From: Aureispira sp. CCB-E
GTDB lineage: Bacteria; Bacteroidota; Bacteroidia; Chitinophagales; Saprospiraceae
DNA: 64,000 nt
Assembly (NCBI RefSeq): GCF_031326345.1
Contig: NZ_CP133671.1
Location: forward strand, 4,836,001 to 4,900,000
Direction: 5' to 3'
A program made the position numbers and the translations under genes. The notes under the pieces are model-generated. The model searched no databases and was not told where the DNA came from. It was given only the letters and a program-made list of their open reading frames with translations. Of this stretch, positions 20,924 through 52,296 are shown piece after piece. Each line of letters begins with the position of its first letter. Positions within the stretch are counted from its first letter, which is position 1.

Positions 20924-21142
20924 TAAAAAAATCTTTTATGAGGTTATAAAATCAATAAAGGGTACATGCTTAATCTCAACAAGTTTTCTAGTTAAATCCG
21001 AAGATATTTAGCACAAAGCTTAGAAAGCAGTGTCAAGTTGAATGCAATTGAATAAAAAGCTCTGTAAACGTACACTTTGTAAATGAGTAGAAATTTTCTA
21101 AAAGTCAATTTTAAAAGTGTACGTTCTTATAAAAATATAATA

Positions 21143-22612: not shown

Positions 22613-22645
22613 TTTTATTTAAGTTTTAAGTGTGATTGAATGATT

Positions 22646-22676
22646 CAAAGCTATGACTATCTGCCTATTGGGTCAA
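22646..22676 (-). promoter_or_regulatory. Promoter for the 21143-22612 gene
   Basis: Minus strand: TTG at 22676-22674, 20-nt spacer, then TAGCTTTG at 22653-22646, matching the Bacteroidota sigma consensus TTTG/N19-21/TAnnTTTG. It lies 34 nt before the start codon. Confidence 0.6.
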
Positions 22677-22795
22677 CATGAAATTTTTCATTTGTGATAA
22701 AAACCAATATTTCAATTTCACCTAAACAAATAAAAATCAACAATTTATTATACGAACATTCAATTAATTTTAACATTTATGCCACCTACAGAAAA

Positions 22796-22826
22796 ATCCC
22801 ATCAAGAAAAGCGATCTTGATGGGAT
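22796..22826 (-). terminator. Terminator of the 22853-24427 gene
   Basis: 12-bp perfect stem (ATCCCATCAAGA 22796-22807 with 22815-22826), 7-nt loop, T-rich tail on the minus strand, 26 bp after the stop codon. Confidence 0.85.
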
Positions 22827-22852
22827 GATAAAAAAGTAACTATCTAATTTTT

Positions 22853-24427
22853 TTATTCTGTTACAACCATTTTTTTCGTAGTAACAATCTCATTATCAAC
22901 AATCAATGTGTACAGATAAATTCCTGCTGATAGATTATTAGTTTCAATGGTCACCAACATTTCATTGCGGTCAGACACCTCTTTCAAAAACAATTGTTTT
23001 CCATCTATCGTACAAACTTGAATTATTGCCTGCTGTACTTCTTCAGGGACAAATAGTTTAATTTGCGTTTCTTTTGAAAATGGATTGGGCGTATTTTGGT
23101 ATAATTTTGCTTTAGACAAAGTAGGTAGCGTTTTAGAATCTAAAGTTATTGGTGCATTGGCTTTCAACAAAGCATCAATTTGAGCTTGTTGCTCCTGTAT
23201 CAATGCTTTTAATTCATCATTTTGAGCACTTAATTCTTGTACAGATTTTACCAATGGCACGACAAATTCTGCATATCGCAATCCATAATAATCATTTCCA
23301 TTTTTAGGAGCATCGACTCCTCCAAAATATTCAAAGCCCAACTCTTTGGCTGTTGCTTCTACTTCTTGAGCAATAAATCCTGTTTGATATTGCTTTGTAT
23401 TGTTAATAGCAGCCTCTTCTAACTCTACGTCTAAAAATTGATTGACAGCCTCTTTGTTAACATAATAACTAACAGGGCGCAAAGCTTTGATAAAGTCCAG
23501 ACCAACAACATTTTCCTTTACATCTTCTTTGAAACGCCCATCTGATAAATTCGTCCAATTTTGGGCACCGCCTATGCTAGTAATTCCAGTATGTCCTACC
23601 CTTACTTGATACGAAGCAGTAGGGATAGCATAAGCTCCTAAACCAGAAGAATAGAAATAACCACTACCTGCTGATCCTGGACCAGCGTTATATCCTATAG
23701 CAGTATTGCCTATCCCCGTTGTGTTATAGCCTAAAGCAGTATTACCTATGGCCACATTTCGATATCCTCCTGCGTTATTTTTCAAAGCATCAGCTCCAAC
23801 ACCAACATTATTATAACCTAAAGTATTATCTTCTAGAGCCCTAGTACCGATAGCTGTATTTTTATAACCTGTCGTATTATAAAACATAGCACGATATCCC
23901 GTTGCTACATTTTCGCTGCCCGTTGTATTTTCTTGTAACGAATGACTTCCTGTAGCCACATTCGAATTTCCTGTTGTATTATAAAACAAAGCGTTGCTTC
24001 CCGTTGCTACGTTGTCAATCCCTTCAGTATTACTATACAAGGTATAATATCCAATCCCTACATTATGAATTCCATTGCTATTTTTGTTTAAGGTATAATA
24101 ACCTACCGCTACATTATAATTTCCTATGGTGTTATTGTATAAGGAACTCATACCAACCCCAATATTGTAACTTCCTGTTGTATTCTTTCTCAAAGAACTG
24201 TAGCCCATGGCAACATTTCTCTGCCCCGTGGTATTGGTATACAAACTAAAAGCTCCAACAGCTGAATTATAACTAGCTGTAGTAGCAGTACCAGCACGTT
24301 GACCAAAAAATGAATTATAAGAACCTGCCGTTCCTGCTCCAGAACCATAATACGTTGGGGTTTGCCCATAAAGACTAATTGCAGCGCACAGCAACATTGA
24401 GCCTAAGCATAATTTTAAACTTTTCAT
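22853..24427 (-). CDS. YadA-head / S74 / T9SS surface fibre protein, paralogue
   Basis: 524 residues with the same architecture as its neighbour at 21143: signal peptide, ~11-12 head repeats (NTTGYKNTAIGTRALEDN type), S74 domain with LSDGRFKED, coiled coil and type A T9SS sorting domain (LYQNTPNPFSKETQ, GIYLYTLIVDNE, KKMVVTE). The head repeats differ in number and order, whereas from PTASYQVRVGH through the coiled coil the two proteins are almost identical, suggesting recent duplication or gene conversion of the 3' half. Surface adhesion is the likely role. A -7 match TACTTTTG is at 24469-24462. Confidence 0.88.
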   Translation of the reverse strand: MKSLKLCLGSMLLCAAISLYGQTPTYYGSGAGTAGSYNSFFGQRAGTATTASYNSAVGAFSLYTNTTGQRNVAMGYSSLRKNTTGSYNIGVGMSSLYNNTIGNYNVAVGYYTLNKNSNGIHNVGIGYYTLYSNTEGIDNVATGSNALFYNTTGNSNVATGSHSLQENTTGSENVATGYRAMFYNTTGYKNTAIGTRALEDNTLGYNNVGVGADALKNNAGGYRNVAIGNTALGYNTTGIGNTAIGYNAGPGSAGSGYFYSSGLGAYAIPTASYQVRVGHTGITSIGGAQNWTNLSDGRFKEDVKENVVGLDFIKALRPVSYYVNKEAVNQFLDVELEEAAINNTKQYQTGFIAQEVEATAKELGFEYFGGVDAPKNGNDYYGLRYAEFVVPLVKSVQELSAQNDELKALIQEQQAQIDALLKANAPITLDSKTLPTLSKAKLYQNTPNPFSKETQIKLFVPEEVQQAIIQVCTIDGKQLFLKEVSDRNEMLVTIETNNLSAGIYLYTLIVDNEIVTTKKMVVTE

Positions 24428-24639: not shown

Positions 24640-26034
24640 TTACACTACTAATTCAGGAAATAAGACTTGATAATGTGCTTTCATCAATTGACGCAACAAC
24701 AAACGCTTGTATTCTTCAGAACCTCTAACATCGGAAATTGGGCTGATCTCTTCTTGTGCTATGTCCAAAGAATTTTTAAAAAGAGCTTCCGAAACTGTTT
24801 GTCCTGTTAAGTAAGCACTTGTCTTGGTTAAGTACTTAGGAACAGGTGCAACACCTCCTGCTGCTAGGCTTGCTTTTGTAATTTCACCGTGCAAATTGCA
24901 CTCTATGTTTATCGCAGTATTAACAGAAGCAATATCCAAATAAGTACGCTTACAAACTTTTTCAAAATTAAAATAATGCTTCTCTGTTGGCAGATCAAAA
25001 TTGATTTCTTGAACAAACTCTGTTTCTTTTTTATCCAGTGTTTTATAGCCCTTAAAAAAGTTCTTTAGTGGAATTTCTCTCAATGCCCCATTGTCATTTA
25101 ATATGATATTACTATTCAACGCTAACAAGAACACCGCCAAATCACCAATTGGCGAAGCATTAACAAGGTTTCCTGCTACGGTTGCCATATTCCGAATTTG
25201 CAATGAAGATATTAAATTAAAAAAATGATCACTATTAGGGCTTAAACTTTGTATAAGTGGCGACTGCTTGAGTGCTTCGGTAGAGGTAGAGGCACCAATA
25301 TGACATCGCCCATTTGCCTTCCAAATCCCCTTTAAATCTTGTCGTTGCGTTGTATGAACTATCTCTGCGGGCAACATTTCGGTGGGGCGCTGTACATACA
25401 AATCTGTCCCTCCCCCTACGAAAATTTTTTGTGCATCATGCCCCAAATCAGTTTCTTGAAGCACACATTCCTTGAGTTTCGTCTCAATATTGACAAAATA
25501 ATTGGGCAAAAAACCATTTTCAACCAACCAATTTATCCTATTGTTGGTATCTAGTTCTTGCAATTCTTGCACAATCTGTTTAAGCGCTCGCTCAATTGAT
25601 TTGTAGCCCGTGCATCGGCAGATATTACCAGCTATCGCCAAAATTCCTTTTTCTTGATTTTTAGGCTCTTTGGACAAGGCAAAACCGCATAAAGACATGA
25701 TAAAACCAGGGGTACAGAAACCACATTGAGTTCCTCCTTCATCCGCTATTGCTGCTTGTATTTTATTTAATCTTATAATATTAACACCTTCTACGGTAAC
25801 AATATGCTTGCTTTGCGCATTACCTAATGGCATCAAGCAAGAAGTAACCGATTCGTAAATTACCTCTGATCCAACTCTTGTTCCAACTAAAACGGTACAA
25901 GCGCCACAATCACCTTCACGACATCCGAGCTTGGTTCCTGTTAGACATTCTTTATATCGTATATAATCTGCCAATACCATCCCTGATGGTAAGTCAGTTT
26001 CTATTAATTCATTATTAAGAATAAATTTTATCAT
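24640..26034 (-). CDS. xdhA: Xanthine dehydrogenase small subunit (2x [2Fe-2S] + FAD)
   Basis: 464 residues. N-terminal plant-type [2Fe-2S] domain (GCREGDCGACTVL plus a later Cys), a second four-Cys [2Fe-2S] domain (QCGFCTPGF and ICRCTGYKSIERAL), then an FAD domain (FVGGGTDLYVQRP, NMATVAGNLVNASPIGDLAVFL) and the CO-dehydrogenase flavoprotein C-terminal domain. It passes electrons from the molybdenum site of XdhB to FAD/NAD+. First gene of the purine-degradation block in transcription order. It diverges from terpene synthase 1 across an 890-bp gap. Confidence 0.95.
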   Translation of the reverse strand: MIKFILNNELIETDLPSGMVLADYIRYKECLTGTKLGCREGDCGACTVLVGTRVGSEVIYESVTSCLMPLGNAQSKHIVTVEGVNIIRLNKIQAAIADEGGTQCGFCTPGFIMSLCGFALSKEPKNQEKGILAIAGNICRCTGYKSIERALKQIVQELQELDTNNRINWLVENGFLPNYFVNIETKLKECVLQETDLGHDAQKIFVGGGTDLYVQRPTEMLPAEIVHTTQRQDLKGIWKANGRCHIGASTSTEALKQSPLIQSLSPNSDHFFNLISSLQIRNMATVAGNLVNASPIGDLAVFLLALNSNIILNDNGALREIPLKNFFKGYKTLDKKETEFVQEINFDLPTEKHYFNFEKVCKRTYLDIASVNTAINIECNLHGEITKASLAAGGVAPVPKYLTKTSAYLTGQTVSEALFKNSLDIAQEEISPISDVRGSEEYKRLLLRQLMKAHYQVLFPELVV

Positions 26035-26128
26035 TTTATTAAACTTTTTTTTAAATCATTTATTTTTTCACTTTAAAAAAGTTAAAATACTAACTTTCAT
26101 AAAGTTACAAAAAACATATCCATTAACA

Positions 26129-26136
26129 CAAAACTA
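26129..26136 (-). promoter_or_regulatory. Possible -7 element of xdhA
   Basis: Minus strand reads TAGTTTTG (TAnnTTTG match), about 95 nt before the xdhA start. The -33 box is poor. Confidence 0.4.
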
Positions 26137-26213
26137 ACACACAGTTAATAATTTGCTAAATTAACTTTTTTCCGTTACATAATTTGTAATATTCATTTTT
26201 TTTACGTATATTA

Positions 26214-26230
26214 GTATTACTAAGTAATAC
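26214..26230. promoter_or_regulatory. 17-bp perfect palindrome (possible operator)
   Basis: GTATTACT-A-AGTAATAC in the divergent gap between xdhA and terpene synthase 1. It adjoins a TATATTAG stretch that resembles a -7 element on the plus strand. A dimeric repressor site is possible; no regulator gene is adjacent. Confidence 0.4.
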
Positions 26231-26346
26231 AGACAATACACGCACAACAAAACTATTATTTATTTAACTTTTAACACAATCAATTTTTAATTCCCTAACT
26301 TCACCAACAACCATAACTCAAAGTTTCCTATTTCAACAACCTCTCT

Positions 26347-26502
26347 ATACCGTACCGCTTATATTATCACTCGCTCCACTTAGGGAGCAATCCGTACCAA
26401 TTGACTTTCTTACAAAATTAGAAACAACCCATTTTTAATATCGCAAGAGTGAGATACCTCCTATTTTACAATTTTAATTTTAAAGTTTGTACTGTCCCTC
26501 CT
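26347..26502 (+). promoter_or_regulatory. Conserved structured upstream element, copy A (terpene synthase 1)
   Basis: This 156-nt stretch aligns over its whole length with 31721-31879 upstream of terpene synthase 2. Shared blocks include CGTACCA-TTGAC, TTTCTTACAAAATT, TTAATATC and CTGT-CCTCCT. A hairpin, GCTCC (26373-26377) with GGAGC (26384-26388), is kept in copy B as ACTCT/GGAGT, with one compensatory G-C to A-T change. It ends 421 bp before the start codon. The remaining gap shows no gene. Confidence 0.6.
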
Positions 26503-26923
26503 ATTCAACGCTGCTAAGGCTGTTGTCTAGTTAGGTGATTTATGTGCTTAATGTTTGTTGATGATTGAACCACCACAATCATTGGGACATCTTATGCCTT
26601 CATTTAACTTTTCTTCATTTAACTTTTTTTATTGATAAGTTATATCAAGCGAGATCCTTCTGTTTTAAAACAAAAATCACAACATATAGCCCGAGATATT
26701 CACCTTATCCAGTATAGATTTTTATCTATTGAAAGTACGAATTACTTTCCATTACTCCAGTTAATTATCACAATGTTTTTAGATAGTTAAAACGGCTTTT
26801 GTATGTCCTAACCAAAAAGCAACACTTAGTGTTAGTGATGATCGTAATAGTCTTATATCTAATGGATAAAAACAGGGAAAATGTACAATCTTATTTTTCA
26901 ACCCCTTATAAAGAAATTGTACC

Positions 26924-28054
26924 ATGAAAGAAAGAAATCAAGAAGCAAACGAAGGTAACAAACCCAACGTATCACAAATCGCTAACGATTTTCAAGACAA
27001 TTTATCCGCATGCCCTGTTAGCCCCTTCAACTCTAAGCAGCTAACCATTTCTACACTAGAAATACACTATCACGAAGCTATTCAAGATATTTTGAAAGCT
27101 ACCTCTAAATTGACCAAAGAGCTGGATATCCAACTAGAAGAGGTCTATTCTGCTCATACAAGTATGACTGCATTTTTATACCCCAACTCAGGTAGGTATA
27201 GATTGGTCATTGCCAATGTTCTCTACGATTTTCTATATTACATCGATGATCTTTTTGGAGAGGACATAGAAATTGGAGAAGACGACGAGCGTCCTTCATT
27301 GATGGCAATGATGCAAATTTGGAAAACTGGAAAAATCCAAGATGGCTTTTTAGATGCTATTAAAAACCCAAAAATTAAGAACATCTATAACGCTTTACTT
27401 TGGATTAGAACTAAGTTATTTCAGAGCTCTGAGCCTGCATTTTTCAAAAAACTATCTGGTCTGCTTTTTGAGCATTTGAAAGATCAGTTGGAGCCTAAAG
27501 ACTTTAGCACTGTAGACGAATATATTTTGCTAAGAAGACGTTTTGGTGGAATGTACCCTGTTGCGTTTCTTGTAGAATACTGCAACAATAGATACCTTGC
27601 CGCAGGTACTTTAGAAAAAGTACCTAGTCTACAAAAAGCAATTGATGCATGTGCTGATATTGGAGGTTTATCAAACGATATTTTCTCCTATCCCAAAGAA
27701 AGTCACAGCAAGTTTAATTTGGTCAACAGTTATTTAGTTGCTCATCCAGAAATGACATTAAAAGAAGCTGTTCAAAATTCTATCGACCTAGTTAACGACT
27801 GTCACTTTGAATTTGACCAAGCCATAGAGCAACTTCAAACAGAGGTTAAGGTTTTATCTGAAGAGCAACAAATTACTGTGTTAAAATTTGCAGAGGGTCT
27901 AAAAGATATTTTATCAGCAAGCTACCACTGGCAATTTGTTACTCAGCGTTTCAGACATGACAACCACATTTTGGAAGACTTGAAACACGAATCTACTTAT
28001 ACATTCAATTCGAAAGTTAAGAATTTGATTCCTCTAATCAAGAAACATGCATAA
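26924..28054 (+). CDS. Class I terpene synthase (terpene cyclase) 1
   Basis: 376 residues, all-helical terpene cyclase fold. The metal-binding aspartate-rich motif is D108-D-L-F-G-E113 and the NSE triad is N251-D-I-F-S255-Y-P-K-E259, both intact, with the C-terminal W-x5-R-[YF] pattern (WQFVTQRF). Such enzymes ionise an isoprenyl diphosphate (FPP or GGPP) and cyclise it. Product cannot be predicted from sequence. A ~50-residue low-complexity N-terminal tail precedes the core. It starts MKERN, as does terpene synthase 2 at 32084, with which it is similar throughout. A terminator follows and then a P450 gene on the same strand. No prenyl diphosphate synthase is in the window. Confidence 0.9.
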   Translation: MKERNQEANEGNKPNVSQIANDFQDNLSACPVSPFNSKQLTISTLEIHYHEAIQDILKATSKLTKELDIQLEEVYSAHTSMTAFLYPNSGRYRLVIANVLYDFLYYIDDLFGEDIEIGEDDERPSLMAMMQIWKTGKIQDGFLDAIKNPKIKNIYNALLWIRTKLFQSSEPAFFKKLSGLLFEHLKDQLEPKDFSTVDEYILLRRRFGGMYPVAFLVEYCNNRYLAAGTLEKVPSLQKAIDACADIGGLSNDIFSYPKESHSKFNLVNSYLVAHPEMTLKEAVQNSIDLVNDCHFEFDQAIEQLQTEVKVLSEEQQITVLKFAEGLKDILSASYHWQFVTQRFRHDNHILEDLKHESTYTFNSKVKNLIPLIKKHA

Positions 28055-28109
28055 AGTAAATGGAATTATCGACTGAATGATAATGAAATTTATTATCTTA
28101 ATACAAAGT

Positions 28110-28147
28110 ATGACCTTAGTCTTTTAGTAGACTAAGGTCATTTAATT
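28110..28147 (+). terminator. Terminator of terpene synthase 1
   Basis: 13-bp perfect stem (ATGACCTTAGTCT 28110-28122 with 28129-28141), 6-nt loop, T-rich tail. It implies that the P450 gene downstream has its own promoter or relies on read-through. Confidence 0.8.
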
Positions 28148-28279
28148 CTATTGTTATTTCCTCATTTTTTTATTGGTCTGACTATCAATGTCTATACCTA
28201 AACAGTCACTAATTTTTTAGTATTACGCAACTATAAGGTTAGTGGATTATTGATTCAAAACACTTAATATATTTTCATA

Positions 28280-29641
28280 ATGGAGAACCCTGAAGTTAAT
28301 GTTCCTAAAATGGGATTGCTTGCTTTTTTACGCAAGCTTCCTAGTATGAATCGCAACTTGATCCTTTTTTTTAAAGAAATATTAGACCAGAATGATGGTC
28401 TTATCAAACTTCCTAACAAACTTACCCTAACCGATGACGCTGAATTGATTCAGTATTTTTTACAAAAGAATAATTCTAACTATATCAAAACCTCTTTAGT
28501 TAGAACTTTTGTAAGAGATCAAATTGGAGATGGTCTTTTTACATCTGACGGAAAATATTGGTTGAAACAACGCAGAGCTATCCAAGCTGGTTTTCACAAA
28601 AAAAAATTAGTTGGCATTTCTAAAATTATGCTTGATGAAATCAATCAATATATGGATAATATCTTGGACGTGTATGCAGAAACAAACCAAGAAATTGATC
28701 TCGAAAAAGAAATGACTTACTTGGCATCAAAAGTAGTTTCCAAAAGCTTGTTCGGGCAAGAGTTTGACAATGAAAAAATTGATGTTATTGATGATAGCAT
28801 TGCCAAAGCAAATGAATACATTGTCGCTGTTGCCAAACAGCCATTTCTAAAACCTTGGTATCATCTCAATGGCGCTTATAAGCATATTGTCAAACAAAAA
28901 AATATTCGAGATAAATTTATCTTAGATTTCATCGAAGAACGAAAAAAATCTGGCGAATCAAAAGATGATTTGCTAGGTATGTTGTTGGATACCGAGTATG
29001 AAGATGGTTCTAAGATGACGAATAAACAGTTGCTAGATGAATCTATTATTTTGATTGTTGCAGGCAACAAAACATCTGCTGTTACAATGGCTTGGCTCTT
29101 CTATTTGCTAGCCAAACACCCTGGAATTGAAGAAAAAGTGCTGCAATCAGTCACAGAAATATTGGGAGATGAAGAACCTTCCATCGAAAGTATTCGCTCA
29201 TTGACTTATCCACTACAAGTCCTAGAAGAAACAATGCGAATGTATCCCGTTGTCTGGCTTATTGACCGAGAACCCGTAGAAGATGACGAGTTTTCGGGCA
29301 TCAAAATCAAAAAAGGAGAAGACATTGCAGCATTTGTATATGGTCTACATCATAATCCTAAGTACTGGAAAGATCCTGAATGTTTTGACCCTGAGCGTTT
29401 CACTCCAGAAAATAAAAAAGAACAGGTTCCTTTTTCTTATTTACCTTTTGGAGGAGGACCAAGAATTTGTATTGGGAAAAATTTTGCTATTATGGAAATG
29501 CAATTCATTTTAGCCATGTTTATTCGGAGGTACAAATTTGTCTTATCGCCAGGACAAAACATAGGTTTTAAACCTTTGCTTACTCTAAGTCCAACGAATG
29601 GTATTAAAGTTCGAGTTCAAAAAAGAAATCCAGCTAGCTAA
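28280..29641 (+). CDS. Cytochrome P450
   Basis: 453 residues, no TM anchor, so soluble. Heme-binding loop PFGGGPRICIGK with the thiolate C397; K-helix ExxR as E317-T-M-R320; PERF motif (DPERFTPE). The I-helix reads A261-G-N-K264-T265-S, where most P450s have AGx[DE]T[TS], so the conserved acid is replaced by lysine. Lying 225 bp after terpene synthase 1, it is the likely tailoring enzyme that oxidises the terpene. No ferredoxin or reductase is next to it. Bidirectional terminator follows at 29655. Confidence 0.93.
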   Translation: MENPEVNVPKMGLLAFLRKLPSMNRNLILFFKEILDQNDGLIKLPNKLTLTDDAELIQYFLQKNNSNYIKTSLVRTFVRDQIGDGLFTSDGKYWLKQRRAIQAGFHKKKLVGISKIMLDEINQYMDNILDVYAETNQEIDLEKEMTYLASKVVSKSLFGQEFDNEKIDVIDDSIAKANEYIVAVAKQPFLKPWYHLNGAYKHIVKQKNIRDKFILDFIEERKKSGESKDDLLGMLLDTEYEDGSKMTNKQLLDESIILIVAGNKTSAVTMAWLFYLLAKHPGIEEKVLQSVTEILGDEEPSIESIRSLTYPLQVLEETMRMYPVVWLIDREPVEDDEFSGIKIKKGEDIAAFVYGLHHNPKYWKDPECFDPERFTPENKKEQVPFSYLPFGGGPRICIGKNFAIMEMQFILAMFIRRYKFVLSPGQNIGFKPLLTLSPTNGIKVRVQKRNPAS

Positions 29642-29654
29642 TAGAATAGGCATA

Positions 29655-29692
29655 AAAAAACTATCTACTGAAATTCAATAGATAGTTTTTTT
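29655..29692. terminator. Bidirectional terminator between P450 and STAS-like gene a
   Basis: Stem AACTATCTA (29659-29667) with TAGATAGTT, flanked by A-run and T-run, so it works in both directions between two convergent genes. Confidence 0.85.
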
Positions 29693-29711
29693 ATTTCTCT
29701 GATGTAATATT

Positions 29712-30134
29712 TTATCCATTTTTCTTTTTTTCGATACATTCTAGCAACCATTTGATTGCCTCGTCTCGTTTTTTTTCATCAAATATTTTGACAGGAGCTT
29801 GTCCTCTTTTGCCATCTGTCAACTTGGATTTACCAGTTATTTTCAAAAAAAGGTTTCCGACAATCTTTGAACCAAAAGAAGTGGTTAACATTGCTGTTGC
29901 GACTTCTCCTATTTCTGCTTCAGAATAACATTTTAGAACTTCTTTACTAAGATAAGTATTTGCCGTATTACTTAACAATCCCCTCACTTTGCCATCTACC
30001 GCTTTTCTCATAGCAGCCACATTTTCTTGTGCAATTTCTAATGTATCAGGCTCTGTCCATTCTTTGTTAGGCAATATTTCAACAATATCGTCGGGTCGAA
30101 CCTTGATGATTAGTGCTCTAGTCCTGTATTCCAT
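29712..30134 (-). CDS. STAS/SpoIIAA-like small protein, paralogue a
   Basis: 140 residues, soluble, no signal peptide. It belongs to a seven-member local family with a shared pattern: RPD[DG]I at ~12-17, a W near 26, DT[LI]E[IT]A.EN, KAV..K.R, Y.[SG]KEV, E[VI]A[TS]A[LM]L, S[FY]G[SA]K.VGN..LK.TGK, and a C-terminal P[VI].IF with WLL. The alternating strands and helices, and the GxN-LK turn, resemble the SpoIIAA/STAS-like (DUF7793-type) proteins of Bacteroidota, often annotated as hypothetical. No enzyme residues are apparent. This copy has the insertion KLTDGKRGQ before the PVKIF strand. Function unknown. Confidence 0.75.
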   Translation of the reverse strand: MEYRTRALIIKVRPDDIVEILPNKEWTEPDTLEIAQENVAAMRKAVDGKVRGLLSNTANTYLSKEVLKCYSEAEIGEVATAMLTTSFGSKIVGNLFLKITGKSKLTDGKRGQAPVKIFDEKKRDEAIKWLLECIEKKKNG

Positions 30135-30248
30135 AGTTTCTATATTTAAAGTTTGTTACAATCACATATTAAGCCTAATAAATATAACATTATTATAACA
30201 ATTAAACATAAAATATATAGGGGTATTTTTATATTTTTCTTAATTTTA

Positions 30249-30656
30249 TCATTTTCGTTTTTTGGCTTTGGCAATTTCATCTAACAAGAACTCAATTGCT
30301 GCTTTTCGATCGCTCATTGCAAAAATACGAACAGGTGCATCTCCTCTACTTTTGCCTGTTAACTTCAAAAATAGATTGCCTACTATTTTTGACCCAAAAG
30401 AAGTGCTTAACATTGCTGTAGCCACTTCTCCTACATACGCCTCATTGTAGTAGTTCATAACTTCTCTACTAAGATAAGTATTGGGGTTTTCGCTCAACAG
30501 CCCTCTGGGTTTTCCATCTACTGCTTTTCTTATTGCTGCCACGTTCTCTTTGGCAATTTCTAAGGTATCAGGTTCTACCCAGTTCTTATCAGGGATAATC
30601 TCAACAATATCATCTGGTCTAACCTTGATAATTAGTGCTTTAGTTCTGTATTCCAT
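30249..30656 (-). CDS. STAS/SpoIIAA-like small protein, paralogue b
   Basis: 135 residues. Very close to paralogues a and c (MEYRTKALIIKVRPDDIVEI, TSFGSKIVGNLFLKLTGKSR). It has the short SRGDAP linker like c, and its C-terminal end reads AIEFLLDEI where the others have WLL. Lies 114 bp upstream of paralogue a on the same strand. The gap is AT-rich with no clear terminator, so a and b may be separate or joint transcripts. Confidence 0.75.
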   Translation of the reverse strand: MEYRTKALIIKVRPDDIVEIIPDKNWVEPDTLEIAKENVAAIRKAVDGKPRGLLSENPNTYLSREVMNYYNEAYVGEVATAMLSTSFGSKIVGNLFLKLTGKSRGDAPVRIFAMSDRKAAIEFLLDEIAKAKKRK

Positions 30657-30784
30657 AATCTTTATGTTTAAGGTTCTTTATTATACTTTTATGTTGTTTT
30701 ATAATTCTAAGTAAACTCAACAGTATATCTAAATATATGAAAACATAAATTCATAAAAAAGAAATATAACTAAAAACTATTATT

Positions 30785-31201
30785 TTAGCCCCTTTTAGCC
30801 TGTTTTTTAGCTTTATTAATATGCTCTAATAACCAAGCAATCCCTTCTTCTTTGTTGCTTGCCGAAAAAATACGTATGGGAGCATCTCCTCTGCTTTTTC
30901 CTGTTAGTTTTAAGAAAAGGTTTCCGACTACTTTTGATCCAAACGAATTGGTCAATATAACAGTAGCCACTTCTCCTACTTCTGCTTCACTATAATAGTT
31001 CATTACCTCTTTGCTTAGATACGTACTTGGTGTGCGACTAAGCAACCCCCTAGGTTTTCCATCTACTGCTTTTTTCATGGCAGCGACATTTTCTTTGGCG
31101 ATTTCCATCGTATCGGGCTCCACCCAATCTTCATTTGGCACAATGTCTACAATGTCATCTGGTCGAACTGTAATCGTCAAGGCTCTTGTTTTGAACTCCA
31201 T
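30785..31201 (-). CDS. STAS/SpoIIAA-like small protein, paralogue c
   Basis: 138 residues. Closest to b (SRGDAPIRIF). It begins MEFKTRALTITVRPDDIVDI. First in transcription of the a-b-c group, divergent from terpene synthase 2 across 880 bp. Its long Lys-rich tail (NKAKKQAKRG) is basic. Confidence 0.75.
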   Translation of the reverse strand: MEFKTRALTITVRPDDIVDIVPNEDWVEPDTMEIAKENVAAMKKAVDGKPRGLLSRTPSTYLSKEVMNYYSEAEVGEVATVILTNSFGSKVVGNLFLKLTGKSRGDAPIRIFSASNKEEGIAWLLEHINKAKKQAKRG

Positions 31202-31647
31202 TTTTTTTTGTAATTAATAATTATCTATTGAATATAATGCCAAGGGGAAATCCTCCAATAACATCAATTATTAAGTATGTTATAAAATATAAGTACAAGA
31301 GAGATTTGAGAATCTTTTTTTCACTCCAAAAATAAATTAATTTTTTAACTGTACAATAAATATATGTAAACTACACCTTAACAAGACCATATAGGGTTCT
31401 TTATTTATATGTATTTACTTATTTTGGTCAAAAATTCCAATATCCTCTCGTATAATTCAATTCTAATACTTATTTATAATAAATATCAAGAATTAAAGTA
31501 CAATATATTTTTAAGAAACCAATCTAGATACTAATAAAAAAAAGAAATTAATTTATATTAGCAGCTCATTAAAAGCCGTTACAAATTGACACATATAATT
31601 TATTAAAATTAATTTTATATTAATTAAAACATTTGATTATTTTGTTT

Positions 31648-31655
31648 ATATTTGT
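31648..31655 (+). promoter_or_regulatory. Possible -7 element for terpene synthase 2
   Basis: TATATTTG matches TAnnTTTG and lies 66 bp before the conserved element copy B, which would put that element inside a ~420-nt 5' leader. No proper TTTG at -33. Confidence 0.35.
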
Positions 31656-31720
31656 AAACAACATAGTAAAACGACATACTTACTTTTAAAAGTAGTTTCG
31701 CCCACAAATTATTCCCTTCA

Positions 31721-31879
31721 ATACTGTATAGCGAATATACCACTCACTCTATTAAGGAGTACACGTACCAGTTGACACTTTCTTACAAAATTTATTAACA
31801 CAATCTAATCTTAATATCTAAGGGTAAGAAGCCTCTATTTTTTGCAATTTCATTTTTAAAAGCTTGTGCTGTTCCTCCT
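31721..31879 (+). promoter_or_regulatory. Conserved structured upstream element, copy B (terpene synthase 2)
   Basis: 159 nt that align with 26347-26502. The hairpin is ACTCT (31746-31750) with GGAGT (31756-31760), where copy A has GCTCC/GGAGC. It ends 205 bp before the start of terpene synthase 2. The rest of the 880-bp gap between 31202 and 32083 shows no gene. Confidence 0.6.
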
Positions 31880-32083
31880 TTGTAATACTCTTATTGACGT
31901 TTTGCGAAGACTGGCGAAGCCTTGCATTGACTGAACAAAACTGTTAACTGCATAAAATAATTCAGAACCAACAATAAACCAAAACTATGCAGCATCTAAC
32001 AAAGAATTAGGCTTCTATAAATAAGCAAATTAGGGAACCTCACAATGCCATTTATTTATCCCTTTTAAAAGAAACCACACACT

Positions 32084-33154
32084 ATGAAAGAAAGAAATAC
32101 AACCACTAAAAATTTCGACTTTTTTTCAAATCATTTCACACTACGAACCACAACCACTTTTAACTCTCAACAGCTCAGTATTTCAGAACTAAGACCCCAA
32201 CATCATGAAGCAATGGAGAGCATTTTATTGGCAACTTCACGTTTATCCAAAGAACTAAATATCCAAATTGACCAATCCTATGCAGCCCATACAACAATGA
32301 CCTCGTTTTTATATCCAAAATCTGGAAAATACAGAATCGTTATTGTTAATATTCTATACGATTTGCTGTATTACATTGATGATTTATTTGGAGAAGATAT
32401 AGAAAAGAACCAACAGGAAGACAAACCTGCTTTGTCTGAGTTGATGTATATCTGGCAAACAGGAAAAATAAACAGCATTTATTATAACCAACTAACTAGC
32501 AATGAGATAAAAACAGTTTGCACTGCATTACAATGGGTTCGAAACAAAATATTTCAAAGTTGCGAACCTACTTTTTTCAAAAAATTATCTTGGCTTTTGT
32601 TTGAACATTTGAGAGATCAATTAAAACCAGATGCCTACGAATCGACAGAAGAATATATTCTATTAAGAAGAAACTTTTCGGGGATGTATGTTGCCATTTA
32701 TTTAATTGAATATTGCACGGGCAGGTATTTAAATCACGATCTTCTAGAGAAAGTACCTAGCTTGCAAACCGCTATTGACTTATGTGCAGATATTGGAGGA
32801 TTATCAAATGATATATTTTCTTATCCTAAGGAAAGCCATAGCCAGTTCAATTTAGTAAATAGTTTTGGGGTGCTTAAACAAACAAAAACCTTAGATAAAG
32901 CAATTCAAAAATCCATTGATTTGGTTAATAATTGCCACGCCGAATTTAAGAAGATGATCAAACAAATTCGTACCGATATTAAGGGCTTAACAGTAGAAGA
33001 AAAGGTAACCGTTTTGCAATTTGCCGATGGGCTTAATTCTATTCTATCCGCTACTTATCATTGGCAATTTGTAACCAATAGATATCGCCACCACCAGCAT
33101 ATTTTAGAAGACATGAAGTATTCGTCTGAACAAATTAACCAAAGAGCATCATAA
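32084..33154 (+). CDS. Class I terpene synthase (terpene cyclase) 2
   Basis: 356 residues, a paralogue of the synthase at 26924. Aspartate-rich motif D99-D100-L-F-G-E, NSE triad N242-D-I-F-S246-Y-P-K-E250 and C-terminal HWQFVTNRY are all kept, so it should be active. It shares the exact start ATGAAAGAAAGAAAT and the conserved upstream element. Differences cluster in the N-terminal tail and the region 130-150. Two diverged paralogues with intact catalytic motifs suggest two terpene products or a substrate split. No P450 of its own; a strong terminator follows. Confidence 0.9.
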   Translation: MKERNTTTKNFDFFSNHFTLRTTTTFNSQQLSISELRPQHHEAMESILLATSRLSKELNIQIDQSYAAHTTMTSFLYPKSGKYRIVIVNILYDLLYYIDDLFGEDIEKNQQEDKPALSELMYIWQTGKINSIYYNQLTSNEIKTVCTALQWVRNKIFQSCEPTFFKKLSWLLFEHLRDQLKPDAYESTEEYILLRRNFSGMYVAIYLIEYCTGRYLNHDLLEKVPSLQTAIDLCADIGGLSNDIFSYPKESHSQFNLVNSFGVLKQTKTLDKAIQKSIDLVNNCHAEFKKMIKQIRTDIKGLTVEEKVTVLQFADGLNSILSATYHWQFVTNRYRHHQHILEDMKYSSEQINQRAS

Positions 33155-33172
33155 TCGAATCTTTTTCATACA

Positions 33173-33213
33173 AAAAGCCATTTCCAAAGATTGGAAATGG
33201 CTTTTGTTTTTTA
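33173..33213 (+). terminator. Terminator of terpene synthase 2
   Basis: 15-bp perfect stem (AAAAGCCATTTCCAA 33173-33187 with 33191-33205), 3-nt loop and T-rich tail, 18 bp after the stop. The A-run at the other side could also stop the convergent paralogue d. Confidence 0.9.
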
Positions 33214-33227
33214 TCGTCAAAGTAAAA

Positions 33228-33638
33228 TTACTTGCGTTTAGCAATTTCATTGAGTAACCATTTTTCAGCAGCTTCTTTTTCAGTGAAAATATCTACTAAA
33301 AATGTCGCTTGCTTATCATTAGACTCAGAATATTTTTTTATCAGTTTTAAATACAGATTACCGACTACTTTTGATCCATACGATGTAATCAATAGTGCTG
33401 TAGCCACTTCATCTATCTCTCCATTGATATAACATTCCAAGACCTCTTTTCCTATATAATGATCAGGCAGATGTCTTAATATGCCTCTTTGCTTCTTGTC
33501 CACAGCTTTTTTCAAAGCTTTAGCATTTTCAGTAGCCGTTTCAATTGTATCAGGCTTGTCCCAATATTCATTATTGATTACTTCTACAATGTCATCTGGT
33601 CGGACTACAATAGTCATTGATTTAGTTTTAAATTCCAT
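33228..33638 (-). CDS. STAS/SpoIIAA-like small protein, paralogue d
   Basis: 136 residues. Pairs with e by DTIETATENAK and YIGKEVLECY. It is the most diverged: the conserved LTGK becomes LIKKYSESND and the penultimate strand reads FLVDIF instead of PVKIF. Convergent with terpene synthase 2. Confidence 0.72.
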   Translation of the reverse strand: MEFKTKSMTIVVRPDDIVEVINNEYWDKPDTIETATENAKALKKAVDKKQRGILRHLPDHYIGKEVLECYINGEIDEVATALLITSYGSKVVGNLYLKLIKKYSESNDKQATFLVDIFTEKEAAEKWLLNEIAKRK

Positions 33639-33778
33639 ATCGCTCTGTTTTTGGGGTTAAACATTGACAATTAAAATAAGCTTTTTTTTCGACAAAAAAG
33701 CTCAAATAATAAAATTGTGATTTAATAAAAAGTATTCCTATATCAATTTTTCAAAGATAAGGCTTACTCTTCAACCCT

Positions 33779-34192
33779 TTATTTTGAATAGAGAGCGATT
33801 TGCTCCAATAACCATGCTTCCGCTAGTTCTCGTTTGGTAAATATTTTGACAGGAGGTTTGTCACTTTCCTGTTCTGCATTTTTCTTTTTTCCTGTTAATT
33901 TCAAATAAATGTTTCCAACTACTTTAGAAGCAAAAGACCGAGTCATTAAAGCAGTTGCGACTTCTCCTATTTCTGCCTTGATATAACATTCCAGCACTTC
34001 TTTTCCAACATACGTATCTGGCATATGACTCAAGATACCTCTCTTTTTTCCATTTACTGCTTTTTTTAGCACCTTGGCATTTTCAGTAGCGGTCTCAATT
34101 GTATCTATATTTTCCCACTCTTCGTTATTGGTCACTTCTACAATATCATCTGGCCGAACCTTAATTGTGATAGATTTTGTTTTGTATTCCAT
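33779..34192 (-). CDS. STAS/SpoIIAA-like small protein, paralogue e
   Basis: 137 residues. Closest to d (ETATENAKVLKKAV, GILSHMPDTYVGKEVLECY) but keeps KLTGK and PPVKIF. Residues RSFASKVVGN replace the usual TSFGSKVVGN. 140 bp separate it from d. Confidence 0.75.
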   Translation of the reverse strand: MEYKTKSITIKVRPDDIVEVTNNEEWENIDTIETATENAKVLKKAVNGKKRGILSHMPDTYVGKEVLECYIKAEIGEVATALMTRSFASKVVGNIYLKLTGKKKNAEQESDKPPVKIFTKRELAEAWLLEQIALYSK

Positions 34193-34330
34193 TTTTCTTC
34201 TTTTAGCTAAATTGACAATTAAAATAAGCTTATTTCTTATAAATCAAATGCCAAATCAGTGAAACAGAACTACGATCTATCAACCATACACCTTGCTGCT
34301 ATCCTTCAACTTCTATCGTTTTGAATTACA

Positions 34331-34741
34331 TCAATTTGTATGGTTTGCTATTTGTTCTAGCAACCATGCTTCAGCATCCTCTTTTTTTGTAAATATCTTT
34401 ACTGGAGCCTTGCCTTCTACGCTTTTCGTAGCAGCTTTACCTGTCAATTTTAAAAACAAATTTCCGACTACTTTTGATCCAAAGGAAGTTGTTAACAAAG
34501 CGCTAGCTATTTCTCCTATCTCAGCATTTTCGTAACACTCCAATACCTCTTTTGACATGTATGTACTTGGCATGTGACTCAACATAGCTCTTGGTTGTCC
34601 ATCTACTGCTTTTTTTAACATTGCAATATTTTCTTGAGCAATTTCTATTGTGTCTGCGTCATTCCAGTTTTCATTGTTTAAAATCTCTACAATTCCATCA
34701 GGGCGAACAATAATTGTCAATGCTCGTGTTGTTAATTTCAT
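34331..34741 (-). CDS. STAS/SpoIIAA-like small protein, paralogue f
   Basis: 136 residues, starting MKLTTRALTIIVRPDGIVEI. It groups with g by RPDGI and SHMPSTYMSKEVLECY/SYMPSTYMSKEVLDCY and by KEDAxxWLLxQIA. Followed downstream by e after 138 bp. Confidence 0.75.
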   Translation of the reverse strand: MKLTTRALTIIVRPDGIVEILNNENWNDADTIEIAQENIAMLKKAVDGQPRAMLSHMPSTYMSKEVLECYENAEIGEIASALLTTSFGSKVVGNLFLKLTGKAATKSVEGKAPVKIFTKKEDAEAWLLEQIANHTN

Positions 34742-34942
34742 GGTTATCTAATCTTAATAAATGTAAATTAATTTCGTATTAGAAGGCTTTTGATTGAGGG
34801 GGGTTGAATTAAAGAGTGCGAAATTAATATATTTTTTAATTTTAGACATACGAAATCCATATTATTTATTGGAGCAAGGTATTTAATTTATTAATTAACC
34901 ACCTGCACCAAAAATAAGCAAGACAATTTGTCGCCAAAAAAT

Positions 34943-35356
34943 CTATTGATGCTTGGCTATTTGGCTCAAAAGCCAAACGACAGCATCTTCTTTTTTGCTA
35001 AAAATTCTAACAGGAGCTTGATTTTTAATTTGACTTGATTTAGCCGCTTTTCCTGTCAATTTCAAATAAGCATTACCCATAACCTTGGCACCAAAAGAAG
35101 TCGTTAACATAGCACTTGCCACTTCACCAATTTCTGCTTTGTCATAGCAATCCAATACTTCTTTGCTCATATAAGTACTTGGCATATAGCTCAGCAAAGC
35201 TCTCGGCTTATTATCTACTGCTTTAATTAACATTTCGATATTCTCTTTGGCAATCTCAACCGTATCGGGTTGATCCCAACCCTCATTGGTATGCATTTCG
35301 ATAATTCCATCAGGTCGAACTTTGATTGTCAACGCTCTTGTTTTGTATTCCTTCAT
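34943..35356 (-). CDS. STAS/SpoIIAA-like small protein, paralogue g
   Basis: 137 residues from the ATG at 35354-35356 (MKEYKTRALTIKVRPDGIIEM). A longer frame runs 20 codons upstream but that stretch is hydrophobic, AT-rich and not shared by the other six, so I chose the internal start. Groups with f. First of the d-e-f-g run in transcription order; divergent from the 35584 gene. Confidence 0.75.
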   Translation of the reverse strand: MKEYKTRALTIKVRPDGIIEMHTNEGWDQPDTVEIAKENIEMLIKAVDNKPRALLSYMPSTYMSKEVLDCYDKAEIGEVASAMLTTSFGAKVMGNAYLKLTGKAAKSSQIKNQAPVRIFSKKEDAVVWLLSQIAKHQ

Positions 35357-35583
35357 ATCCCTTTCATTTTTCAATAATAATAATATCAAAATATAAATTA
35401 TATTAGATATAATCAATTAAAATATCAAATATTTAAAATATTAAATACAACCTTAACACTTAACTTTGCTAAAAAAATTATATCGGAGTAAAATTTAGAA
35501 ACAAATAAGAAGCAAAACTTGACATTTGTGTAAAAAAAAATTAGTTTTACTTAACTAAAAATGTTAACAGATTATTTATAAAT

Positions 35584-36300
35584 ATGAAAAAACAGAGTAT
35601 CAATAGAGAATATAATTTCCCTGATGCAGATTTGTATGCCCAATGCAAAGAACGCATCCAATATATCAAACGAGATCAGAAAGAATTTGAAAGTTATGCT
35701 TATGCTGATAGTAAAATCAAGCACTTTGAGCAATTGTGTAAAAGATTCTCTGATTTGCCAGATGATGACGAGTTGATTGGCAATCAAATGGAAGCTACTA
35801 GCAAGAAAAATGATGCCAAAGAAAAACTAAAAACAGCCATTCGATCCGTTATGACTCGCGTTGCTAGCAAATACAATACGCGTTCGGGACATTACCGAAA
35901 GTTTGGTACTATCAAAATGAATGATATGAGTGATCCTAAGTTGCTACTTTGTGGGCGTCGTGTTGTACGTGTTTCTAATAAACTGTTGGACTTTTTGGCG
36001 GAAACAGGCTTGAGGCAGCCTCACATAGATGCTGTTCAAAGAGCAGCAGCAGCATTTGAAAATACCATTCATATCCAACAAGATAAAGTTTCTGATAGAG
36101 ACATTTCTGTAGAAAAACGCATTGAATTGGGCAACGAACTTTATCGTGAATTGGTTTTAGTTTGTAATATAGGAAAGGATATTTGGGCAGAAAACAATAA
36201 GGCCAAATATGAAAACTACACCATTTACGAAAGCAACAATGATCAGAAAAAAGCTCGAAAAGAACGCCTAAAGCAAGAGGCTAAAACAACAAAAAAATAG
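35584..36300 (+). CDS. Helical cytoplasmic protein of unknown function
   Basis: 238 residues, charged and predicted mostly helical, with no signal peptide or TM. An N-terminal helix pair (1-70) is followed by a basic central patch (SVMTRVASKYNTRSGHYRKFG), a long helix region, and a Lys-rich tail (KKARKERLKQEAKTTKK). The two helical halves could be a four-helix bundle. No family recognised. It is divergent from STAS-like g (227 bp) and convergent with hisIE. Confidence 0.7.
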   Translation: MKKQSINREYNFPDADLYAQCKERIQYIKRDQKEFESYAYADSKIKHFEQLCKRFSDLPDDDELIGNQMEATSKKNDAKEKLKTAIRSVMTRVASKYNTRSGHYRKFGTIKMNDMSDPKLLLCGRRVVRVSNKLLDFLAETGLRQPHIDAVQRAAAAFENTIHIQQDKVSDRDISVEKRIELGNELYRELVLVCNIGKDIWAENNKAKYENYTIYESNNDQKKARKERLKQEAKTTKK

Positions 36301-36307
36301 CTTTTCG

Positions 36308-36350
36308 TTAGACAGTGCCCAAGACTTACAAAGGCACTGTCTAATCATTT
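36308..36350. terminator. Bidirectional terminator between the 35584 gene and his operon
   Basis: 12-bp perfect stem (TTAGACAGTGCC 36308-36319 with 36333-36344), 13-nt loop, T-rich on the plus side. It lies between two convergent stops. Confidence 0.75.
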
Positions 36351-36378
36351 TAAACAATAAAAAAGCCATACAAAACTG

Positions 36379-36972
36379 TTATTGATGGCGCTTTTCTAAA
36401 ACAGCTAATACCTCGCTCAAAGTATAGTTTTTAGCCGCCAGTAGCACCAAATAATGATACATTAAATCCGCAGCCTCTCCCAAGAACAATTCCTTGTTAT
36501 CATCCTTGGCTTCTATCACCAACTCTATGGCTTCTTCTCCCAACTTTTGAGCTACTTTGTTGATCCCCTTTTCTAATAATTGAGCAGTGTACGAACTATT
36601 TTTCAAATTATTTTTCCTCGACTGAATGACAGTCTCTAAGTATTTCAAATCAAAATTGGACTTATTCTCTGTATTAAAACAGGTTCCTGTCCCTTTATGA
36701 CAAGCGGGTCCTTTAGGCTGCACTTGTATTAACAAAGTATCTTTATCACAATCCTCTTGGATAGCAAGTACTTTCAAATAGTTACCCGAAGTTTCTCCTT
36801 TTGTCCACAAACGCTTCTTCGTTCTGCTATAAAATGTTACTAGTTTTGTAGCTTTTGTCTGCTCAAAAGCAGCTTGATTCATGTACCCCAACATTAAGAC
36901 ATTTTTTGTCTTGGCATCTTGTATAATCGCAGGTACTAAGCCTCCTGTTTTTTCGTAATTCAATTCTATCAT
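36379..36972 (-). CDS. hisI: Bifunctional phosphoribosyl-AMP cyclohydrolase / phosphoribosyl-ATP pyrophosphatase
   Basis: 197 residues, HisIE fusion. HisI part (1-105) has MLGYMNQAAFEQT, the zinc ligands in QEDCDKDTLLIQV and GPACHKGTGTCF; HisE part (110-197) has GEEAIELVIEA and EAADLMYHYLVLL. It performs steps 2 and 3 of histidine synthesis. Last gene of the operon; its start overlaps the hisF stop by one base. Confidence 0.96.
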   Translation of the reverse strand: MIELNYEKTGGLVPAIIQDAKTKNVLMLGYMNQAAFEQTKATKLVTFYSRTKKRLWTKGETSGNYLKVLAIQEDCDKDTLLIQVQPKGPACHKGTGTCFNTENKSNFDLKYLETVIQSRKNNLKNSSYTAQLLEKGINKVAQKLGEEAIELVIEAKDDNKELFLGEAADLMYHYLVLLAAKNYTLSEVLAVLEKRHQ

Positions 36973-52042: not shown

Positions 52043-52296
52043 CAATTCCAACACCCATCATCATCATTCCTCTCCTCTTGTTCTTCTTCTCTATAAAACC
52101 AACCAGACAGTTAAATTAATGTCCCTCTAAGCTTTACACTGCAATGAATCCTAAAATATTTCGTTTTATTTTAGTATATTCGCTAGTTCCTAAATCCGAA
52201 AAAAATAAGAGCACTCATTTCAAAAAATGAGTATCTCGTATCAATCAATTTCCACCTTCAACATTGCATTGCTGCAATTTTGTTAGAACATTTGTT

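What the first reader, a model, noticed from the sequence alone, without database searches (positions are those of the whole stretch)
26035..35416. Terpenoid locus built of two terpene synthases, one P450 and seven STAS-like paralogues
Seen: two class I terpene synthases with intact DDxxxE and NSE motifs, a P450, and seven ~137-residue paralogues (29712, 30249, 30785, 33228, 33779, 34331, 34943) interleaved around them on the opposite strand. The small proteins resemble the SpoIIAA/STAS-like (DUF7793-type) group but no such tandem family is part of any terpene pathway I know. The paralogues fall into three sub-groups (a-b-c, d-e, f-g), so they expanded locally. Inference: they may act as hydrophobic-ligand carriers, scaffolds or regulators for the terpene products. 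Mere proximity is the alternative.
Basis: partly seen in the sequence, partly recalled or inferred. Interest (0 to 1): 0.82.

Follow-up and report, generated by a model that had tools for sequence, protein, structure and literature searches.

The report
Terpene island with structured RNA leaders
In the marine bacterium Aureispira, two terpene-making enzyme genes and a row of seven look-alike STAS-type proteins sit in one gene island, and the enzyme genes carry upstream stretches with hairpins kept by compensating mutations; the small proteins themselves belong to a common, many-copy family and are not a terpene-specific invention.

Summary
Two class I terpene synthases (TS), a P450 and seven 135-140 aa paralogues lie at 26924-35356, in Aureispira. 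The paralogues are below-cut-off relatives of DUF7793 with a predicted STAS-like fold.
As a family they are not tied to terpenes: DUF7793 is in 182 of 395 class genomes, TS (PF19086) in 2 of 395, and only this genome has both. 41 of 57 Aureispira copies lie beside unrelated genes.
A local link exists. All four Aureispira species found with the subfamily have copies next to a TS, and copies are kept under purifying selection. In a fifth species, lacking both, the two flanking genes are 268 bp apart, as expected if the island is gained or lost as one unit; this rests on one empty site.
New here: TS genes carry conserved stretches 360-570 nt upstream, with hairpins showing compensatory changes, without Rfam match. 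In nine genus genomes their model hits only TS leaders at E < 0.01, one of them outside its training set.
Best reading: a terpenoid island with STAS-fold regulators and an undescribed cis-regulatory RNA. Expression and function are untested; passenger status of the small proteins is a serious rival.

The parts
26183..26923 (+). Presumed long 5' leader of TS1. A Bacteroidota-type promoter-like match (TTTG-N20-TAtaTTAG) begins at 26183; the consensus is recalled and the transcript start is not known.
   Evidence: strict pattern within 200 nt upstream of H1 in 2 of 7 leaders only (shuffled mean 0.195, maximum 2), so weak
26350..26420 (+). Conserved leader element R1 with hairpin H1 (stem 26373-26377 / 26384-26388)
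   Evidence: 79.5 bits; a training row of the model; 39 of 39 cells paired over 8 rows, 3 of 5 pairs with changes on both sides
26560..26583 (+). Hairpin H2 of the TS1 leader, followed by GGGA; suggestive only
   Evidence: -6.8 kcal/mol, 1% of shuffles as low; only 2 of 6 leaders fold this stretch below the 5% level of shuffles
26735..26815 (+). Leader element R2 with hairpin H3 (stem 26761-26769 / 26782-26790)
   Evidence: 35 of 36 cells over 4 rows; 44 of 45 over 5 rows on a model-fitted alignment, 4 of 9 pairs with changes on both sides
26924..28054 (+). Class I terpene synthase 1
   Evidence: PF19086 E 3.2e-20; DDLFGE and NDIFSYPKE
28280..29641 (+). Cytochrome P450
   Evidence: PF00067 E 4e-85; nearest solved sequence is the carotenoid hydroxylase LUT5
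29712..30134 (-). STAS-like (DUF7793-like) paralogue a
   Evidence: orthologues in G001 and G006; pN/pS 0.102/0.55 against G001
30249..30656 (-). STAS-like paralogue b
30785..31201 (-). STAS-like paralogue c
   Evidence: Orthologues in G001 and G006; pN/pS 0.091/0.68 against G006
31724..31791 (+). Leader element R1 of TS2, with hairpin H1 (31746-31750 / 31756-31760)
   Evidence: 62.6 bits; a training row. No R2 match in this leader
32084..33154 (+). Class I terpene synthase 2
   Evidence: PF19086 E 7.6e-18
33228..33638 (-). STAS-like paralogue d
33779..34192 (-). STAS-like paralogue e
34331..34741 (-). STAS-like paralogue f (structure modelled)
   Evidence: AlphaFold2 pLDDT 88.0, pTM 0.83
34943..35356 (-). 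STAS-like paralogue g
   Evidence: the TTG start at 35416 is less likely
24640..26034 (-). Left border: [2Fe-2S]/FAD molybdopterin-dehydrogenase-type gene, 464 aa
   Evidence: the same border in G001 and G003 by BLAST, in G006 by length and N-terminus on contig C26
35584..36300 (+). Right border: 238-aa ORF with no Pfam match
   Evidence: present in 7 of 9 genus genomes; lies 268 bp from the left border gene in island-free G005

Best explanation
This is a genus-specific terpenoid island of Aureispira. Shown: two class I terpene synthases, a P450 and a set of retained STAS-fold (predicted) small proteins occupy the interval between two border genes; four species have TS and small genes there, and one species without either has the two border genes next to each other; most of the TS genes are preceded by conserved stretches that hold hairpins with compensatory changes. 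Inferred: the island is gained or lost as a unit; the synthases cyclise a prenyl diphosphate (most likely FPP) and the P450 oxidises the product; the small proteins work as cytosolic partner-binding regulators of the SiaC / anti-sigma-antagonist kind, one local branch of a family that also sits beside a chemosensory operon and other genes; the leader is transcribed and controls TS expression in cis as RNA.
For: Island: TS and small copies together in 4 of 4 species with the subfamily; the border genes are 268 bp apart in G005, which has neither. Retention: eight cross-species pairs have pN 0.091-0.209 against pS 0.55-0.78. Fold: bbb-a-b-a-b-a-b-a, pLDDT 88; top Foldseek match SiaC, and an anti-sigma-factor antagonist at TM 0.57/0.65. 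Signalling context: copies beside MCP, CheW and CheA genes in three species (Pfam checked in one of them, L054); in the wider class, a protein of a cluster whose representative is an AraC-type regulator lies in 20 of 30 3.3-kb DUF7793 loci, and one of a response-regulator cluster in 5 of 30. Leader: H1 paired in 39 of 39 cells over 8 rows; H3 in 35 of 36 over 4 rows and 44 of 45 over 5 rows; covariation scores reached by 2, 10 and 1 of 500 shuffles; partners slid by 1-3 columns pair in 27-64% of cells. R1 finds only TS leaders at E < 0.01 in 9 genus genomes, among them one absent from the model, and nothing beyond the own genome in 61 family genomes. No Rfam family over its gathering score in the window stretch.
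Against: No expression or biochemical data. The site next to the cytidylate-kinase-like gene is also occupied in all four species, so a conserved neighbourhood is not special to TS. The small genes run opposite to the TS genes, so they do not share a transcript with them. No partner kinase or anti-sigma gene was seen among the island ORFs. The loop Ser/Thr of STAS switches is not conserved among the seven (S63 of copy f is G in two, T60 is H in one). Foldseek E-values are weak (best 5.8e-3). The leader rows are few and related; three H1 rows are tandem copies from one leader. For H1 the number of pairs with changes on both sides is reached by 121 of 500 shuffles and the number of pair types by 335 of 500 (51 and 402). 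G006 TS2, and the more distant TS of G002, have no R1 or R2 match, and the window's TS2 leader lacks R2. The searches scored at most 150 and 80 first-look candidates per genome, so weak places may be missed. In G002 the right border gene lies in another neighbourhood, and G004 and G007 have no match to it, so the empty site was seen once.
Confidence: 0.5

Rival explanations
1. Passengers: the small genes are one outpost of a family that duplicates in tandem and settles at many sites; their place beside the TS genes was fixed once in an ancestor and says nothing about terpenes.
For: 41 of 57 genus copies lie elsewhere, at 3 to 8 other sites per genome, contigs of draft genomes counted as sites. 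The site near the cytidylate-kinase-like gene is occupied in 4 of 4 species too. DUF7793 is in 182 of 395 class genomes, only one of which has a PF19086 match. The four species share one ancestry.
Against: Three sub-groups kept at the locus across species under purifying selection; absent together with the TS at the same site in G005, although G005 lacks the subfamily altogether.
Confidence: 0.33
2. Hydrophobic-ligand carriers or scaffolds: the small proteins bind terpene products or prenyl precursors in a STAS/CRAL-TRIO-type cavity.
For: The fold is shared with the Shewanella SpoIIAA-like proteins, where a 1743 cubic-angstrom nonpolar cavity was seen and a carrier role proposed (PMC2954212, passages read). 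Two weak SpoIIAA-like profile matches, E 0.043 and 0.11.
Against: The Shewanella structures are not among the 50 rows shown of 822 matches. The family is widespread in genomes without TS.
Confidence: 0.13
3. The leader hairpins are DNA operators or relics of duplicated promoters rather than RNA structures.
For: H1 is a short inverted repeat. G001 has three tandem H1 units before TS1, and G003 has two promoter-like matches before its TS. Few sequences; some covariation measures are not rare in shuffles.
Against: Both arms change together in 3 of 5 pairs of H1 and 3-4 of 9 of H3, unlike a protein operator with a fixed sequence. The block is 73-77% identical while synonymous sites are near saturation.
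Confidence: 0.25

Closest known systems
DUF7793 (PF25056), STAS-like family
   Same: Best Pfam match of all seven proteins; the family is likewise often multi-copy and at times tandem in the class
   Different: Below the curated cut-off; an Aureispira-specific expansion; no paper holding the word DUF7793 in the library
SiaC / anti-sigma-factor antagonist STAS proteins
   Same: STAS-like fold, single-domain size
   Different: No sequence match of weight in the PDB search; loop Ser/Thr not conserved; no partner kinase seen in the island
SpoIIAA-like PF11964 (Shewanella, PDB 2q3l/2ook)
   Same: Same fold class; weak profile match for two of the seven
   Different: Not in the 50 structural matches shown; cavity not tested
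Bacterial sesquiterpene synthase plus P450 clusters (epi-isozizaene synthase with a P450 in Streptomyces, passage of PMC12723471; pentalenene)
   Same: Class I synthase near a P450; NCBIfam equivalog models of these families match below cut-off
   Different: Two synthases, opposing STAS-like array, conserved hairpin leaders; product unknown
Metabolite-responsive leader RNAs (riboswitches and other cis-regulatory RNAs)
   Same: Position upstream of one gene family, compensatory base changes
   Different: No Rfam match over threshold; seen in one genus only; transcription, ligand and switching untested

Membership tests
Class I terpene synthase (PF19086) | Profile match over the curated cut-off | tested here: met
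   73.2 and 65.4 bits against 23.7
Class I terpene synthase (PF19086) | Asp-rich and NSE metal-binding motifs | tested here: met
   DDLFGE and NDIFSYPKE in both
Class I terpene synthase (PF19086) | Catalysis on a prenyl diphosphate | not testable with these tools
   Needs enzyme assay
Cytochrome P450 | Profile match over the curated cut-off | tested here: met
   286.8 bits against 22.8
DUF7793 (PF25056) | Score over the 26-bit curated cut-off | tested here: not met
   16.9-23.4 bits for the seven
DUF7793 (PF25056) | Best Pfam match of each protein | tested here: met
   I call them DUF7793-like, not members
STAS fold | Predicted fold matches solved STAS proteins | tested here: inconclusive
   Order of elements fits; anti-sigma-factor antagonist at TM 0.57/0.65, but no match at E <= 0.001
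STAS partner-switch protein (SpoIIAA type) | Phosphorylatable Ser/Thr conserved at the start of the second helix | tested here: not met
   S63 is G in two of seven; T60 is H in one
SpoIIAA-like / CRAL-TRIO-type carrier | Deep nonpolar cavity | not testable with these tools
   Model coordinates not available; no carrier structure among the 50 matches shown
Known Rfam family | Gathering score | tested here: not met
   Window 26000-36400 only: no match over a gathering score; the nine weak matches do not overlap H1, H2 or H3
Structured cis-regulatory RNA | Compensatory changes on an alignment not fitted to the structure | tested here: met
   H1: MAFFT alignment A10, score reached by 2 of 500 shuffles, though pairs changed on both sides by 121 of 500; H3: A5, 10 of 500 on both measures. 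Stems were picked by eye on these rows
Structured cis-regulatory RNA | Transcribed with, and controlling, the downstream gene | not testable with these tools
   Needs RNA-seq and reporters

The most novel reading that the evidence does not exclude
Aureispira terpene synthases are governed by a new class of structured leader RNA, used only on these genes, and the island's STAS-like array is its dedicated protein partner or product-sensing co-regulator: a two-layer control of terpene biosynthesis for which I saw no description (12 titles and abstract starts listed of 422 papers).
Probability: 0.12. Interest if true: 0.82.

Novelty: new variant of a known kind. Interest (0 to 1): 0.52.

Why it matters
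Terpene synthases of the PF19086 kind are rare in this class (2 of 395 genomes), and these come with an unusual regulatory dress: covarying upstream hairpins seen only before TS genes in the genus, and a retained array of STAS-fold proteins of a family on which the library searched holds no paper by name. Aureispira sp. CCB-QB1 of the same species has been grown and used (PMC8868019, listing only), so the island, its product and the leader can be tested directly. It also gives a way into the function of DUF7793-type proteins, present in 182 of the 395 class genomes examined.

Tried and rejected
Rejected: a terpene-specific protein family. Rejected: chance proximity in one strain. Rejected: a known RNA family, for the window stretch. 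Rejected: a conserved small ORF in the leader as cause of the conservation; ORFs of 18 or more codons in 7 leaders gave no peptide shared by most leaders; the six best pairwise scores were 36-47, no shuffle control was made. Rejected: leader element as a genome-wide repeat; own-genome search with the 241-nt TS1 stretch finds only the two TS leaders below E 0.03.

Led nowhere: the genome-contig scan for the small proteins returned six loci, all Aureispira by title. PHROGs gave nothing useful for the three small proteins tried of seven. PDB sequence search with the small-protein profile gave four weak matches, best E 0.28. No paper on terpene synthases of Aureispira was found; one search listed 30 of 76 papers with the name, and only listings were seen except for passages of PMC4012451, where Aureispira occurs in the reference list. 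PMC12723471: passages only. PMC2954212: passages only; listings only. The promoter-like pattern, near H1 in only 2 of 7 leaders, is not used as strong evidence. H2: a hairpin is drawn in most leaders, but only 2 of 6 fold below the 5% level of shuffles, and the alignment was too poor to count pairs. Alignment A7 placed the TS2 hairpin out of register and was not used further. In A11 MAFFT put the G006 stem out of register; A12, fitted to the model, was used for the five-row H3 count, and this leans towards the structure. An out-of-genus hit, G065, was weak (best E 4.3e-10) and left out of the tree. The 13th own-genome match (E 0.029) was not counted as a copy.
Full report
WHERE. The window is G000:C1:4836001-4900000 of a 7.39-Mb genome. 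The same island lies in Aureispira sp. CCB-QB1 (L099, query copy 100% identical; G100 is listed as the same species). G001 and G006 are uncultured Aureispira assemblies, judged from contig numbers and lengths against the titles.

OBSERVATION. The P450 and both synthases run on the plus strand and all seven small genes on the minus strand, so the small genes do not share transcripts with the enzymes. Hairpins between the convergent ends, P450/a at about 29650-29690 and TS2/d at about 33170-33215, were read by eye as likely terminators.

THE SMALL PROTEINS. They match DUF7793 below its cut-off. A model of copy f from 20 Aureispira sequences has pLDDT 88.0 and pTM 0.83, with a STAS-type order of elements. 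Foldseek against the PDB gives no match at E <= 0.001; the top is SiaC of Pseudomonas (E 5.8e-3), and an anti-sigma-factor antagonist matches at TM 0.57/0.65; unrelated folds such as enoyl-CoA hydratases stand among the top rows too. The own genome has 12 copies: 7 here and 5 elsewhere, one of the latter with an in-frame TAG; a 13th match at E 0.029 is not counted. Of 100 genomes searched as relatives, the own among them, 5 match: four of this genus, and one of the order, weakly.

IS THE FAMILY TIED TO TERPENES? No. In 395 genomes of the class (same draw in both calls, judged by handles), DUF7793 is found in 182 and Terpene_syn_C_2 in 2; the overlap is the own genome alone. In the four Aureispira species with the subfamily I collected 57 copies, of which 16 lie at the TS locus. 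Others lie in a chemosensory operon in three species, by a cytidylate-kinase-like gene in four, by a photolyase-like gene in two, and elsewhere. MCP, CheW and CheA were confirmed by Pfam in one species (L054); the CheY-type, kinase and photolyase names are read from N-terminal sequence only. In 30 DUF7793 loci from the class, each about 3.3 kb, members of a cluster whose representative is an AraC-type regulator lie nearby in 20, a cluster of 169-aa type without Pfam match in 19, and a response-regulator cluster in 5; one representative of each was scanned. These 30 are among the best-scoring matches, not a random sample. This points to signalling rather than chemistry.

IS THIS ARRAY TIED TO THIS ISLAND? 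Yes, within the genus. TS-adjacent copies occur in G000, G001, G003 and G006: 4 of 4 species with the subfamily. G002 has one more distant TS and no small copies; G004, G005 and G007 have neither. In G003 the unit is reduced to one TS and two small genes without P450. In G005 the two border genes are adjacent with 268 bp between them. This empty site was seen once: in G002 the right border gene has other neighbours, and G004 and G007 have no match to it. G005 also lacks the whole subfamily, so joint absence there is not specific to the island. The tree puts the 16 TS-linked copies, with the chemosensory, photolyase and one further copy, in one supported clade of 26 (99/100); the TS-linked copies are not one side of a single branch (3 changes). 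It shows orthologues of a and c in G001 and G006, of f in G001 and G003, and d/e relatives in G001, so the array predates the species. Eight cross-species pairs have pN 0.091-0.209 against pS 0.55-0.78. The four species share descent, so these are not independent events.

THE LEADERS. Reading the DNA, I saw a shared non-coding stretch before both synthases. BLASTN gives 73% over 166 nt between TS1 and TS2 and 75-77% over 110-145 nt to the G001 leaders. Synonymous sites of the same genes are near saturation: pS 0.82 for TS1/TS2 and 0.75 for TS1/G001. The element begins 574 nt before TS1 and 360 nt before TS2. In the own genome the stretch matches nothing else below E 0.03. Two hairpins, picked by eye, were counted on alignments made without structure. 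H1: 34 of 34 cells in 7 rows and, with the later G006 leader, 39 of 39 in 8 rows, 3 of 5 pairs with changes on both sides. The covariation score is reached by 2 of 500 shuffles, but the number of pairs changed on both sides by 121 and the number of pair types by 335 of 500; three H1 rows are tandem copies from one G001 leader. H3: 35 of 36 cells in 4 rows, 3 of 9 pairs with changes on both sides, 10 of 500 shuffles, and 44 of 45 in 5 rows on the model-fitted alignment, 1 of 500. Partners slid by 1-3 columns pair in 27-64% of cells.

OUT-OF-SAMPLE TEST. The H1 model R1 was run over the 9 genus genomes; at most 150 of 1145-2751 first-look candidates were scored per genome. At E < 0.01 it finds 10 places: the TS leaders of G000 (2), G100 (2), G001 (4, three of them tandem copies before TS1), G003 (1), and one on contig C26 of G006, which was not in the model (E 5.8e-5). 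C26 carries a 465-aa ORF with the N-terminus of the left border gene, and its end repeats the start of the contig that opens with TS1 (compare), so this is the missing TS1 leader of G006. The H3 model finds the same leader (E 2.8e-5). Three weak matches at E 0.7-0.9 are taken as chance. In 61 family genomes, only the own genome matches at E <= 0.01, under stricter filters. Of seven non-redundant TS leaders of the island, H1 is found in 6 and H3 in 5; G006 TS2 has neither at threshold (only a weak nhmmer match, E 0.0011), the window's TS2 leader lacks H3, and the distant TS of G002 has no match.

MECHANISM. I take the small proteins as partner-binding regulators, one branch of a signalling family, and the leader as a cis-regulatory RNA. 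Both steps are inferred; that the leader is transcribed is not shown. The passenger rival for the small proteins is close behind, because the cytidylate-kinase site is just as conserved. The carrier idea rests on the Shewanella SpoIIAA-like precedent (PMC2954212, passages), which could not be tested here.

ENZYMES. Nearest solved sequences of TS1 are presilphiperfolan-8-beta-ol synthase and germacradienol/geosmin synthase (TS2 not searched), which suggests a sesquiterpene product; this is inference. The P450 is nearest to LUT5 among solved sequences, with CYP4B1, CYP3A4 and CYP102-type enzymes behind.

CHECK. On checking against the calls, the spacing of the border genes was mended (268 bp), contrary shuffle measures and the candidate limits of the genome searches were added, and the statement on H2 was weakened.

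Noticed in passing
L048:7620-8115 and L047:7490-8075: Tandem H1 units upstream of one TS: three copies in G001; two promoter-like matches before the G003 TS, the first with a stretch only weakly like H1.
   Followed up: partly
L097:1430-4510: Array of six tandem small paralogues in G001 with no terpene synthase on the stretch read; the subfamily seems prone to tandem duplication.
   Followed up: no
L054:5637-15865, L059, L063: DUF7793-like genes lie after CheW in a chemosensory operon in three Aureispira species (four copies in G001); Pfam checked in L054 only.
   Followed up: partly
G000:C1:3888871-3889263: A small paralogue with an in-frame TAG; a G001 copy at C102:16284 also holds stops. 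Likely decayed copies.
   Followed up: no
window 35584-36300: 238-aa ORF with no Pfam match, 77-90% identical in the five other Aureispira species that have it; it forms the right border of the island.
   Followed up: partly
L105:705-1214 (minus) and 18 further loci: A 169-aa type of protein without Pfam match beside DUF7793 genes in 19 of 30 class loci, with an AraC-type cluster in 20 of 30: possibly a conserved signalling unit.
   Followed up: partly
window 52264-63303: A single 3679-aa open frame on the plus strand.
   Followed up: no
window 19088-24427: A 611-aa protein of short leucine-rich-type repeats and two related 489/524-aa repeat proteins with similar C-terminal tails, probably secreted (reading by eye).
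   Followed up: no
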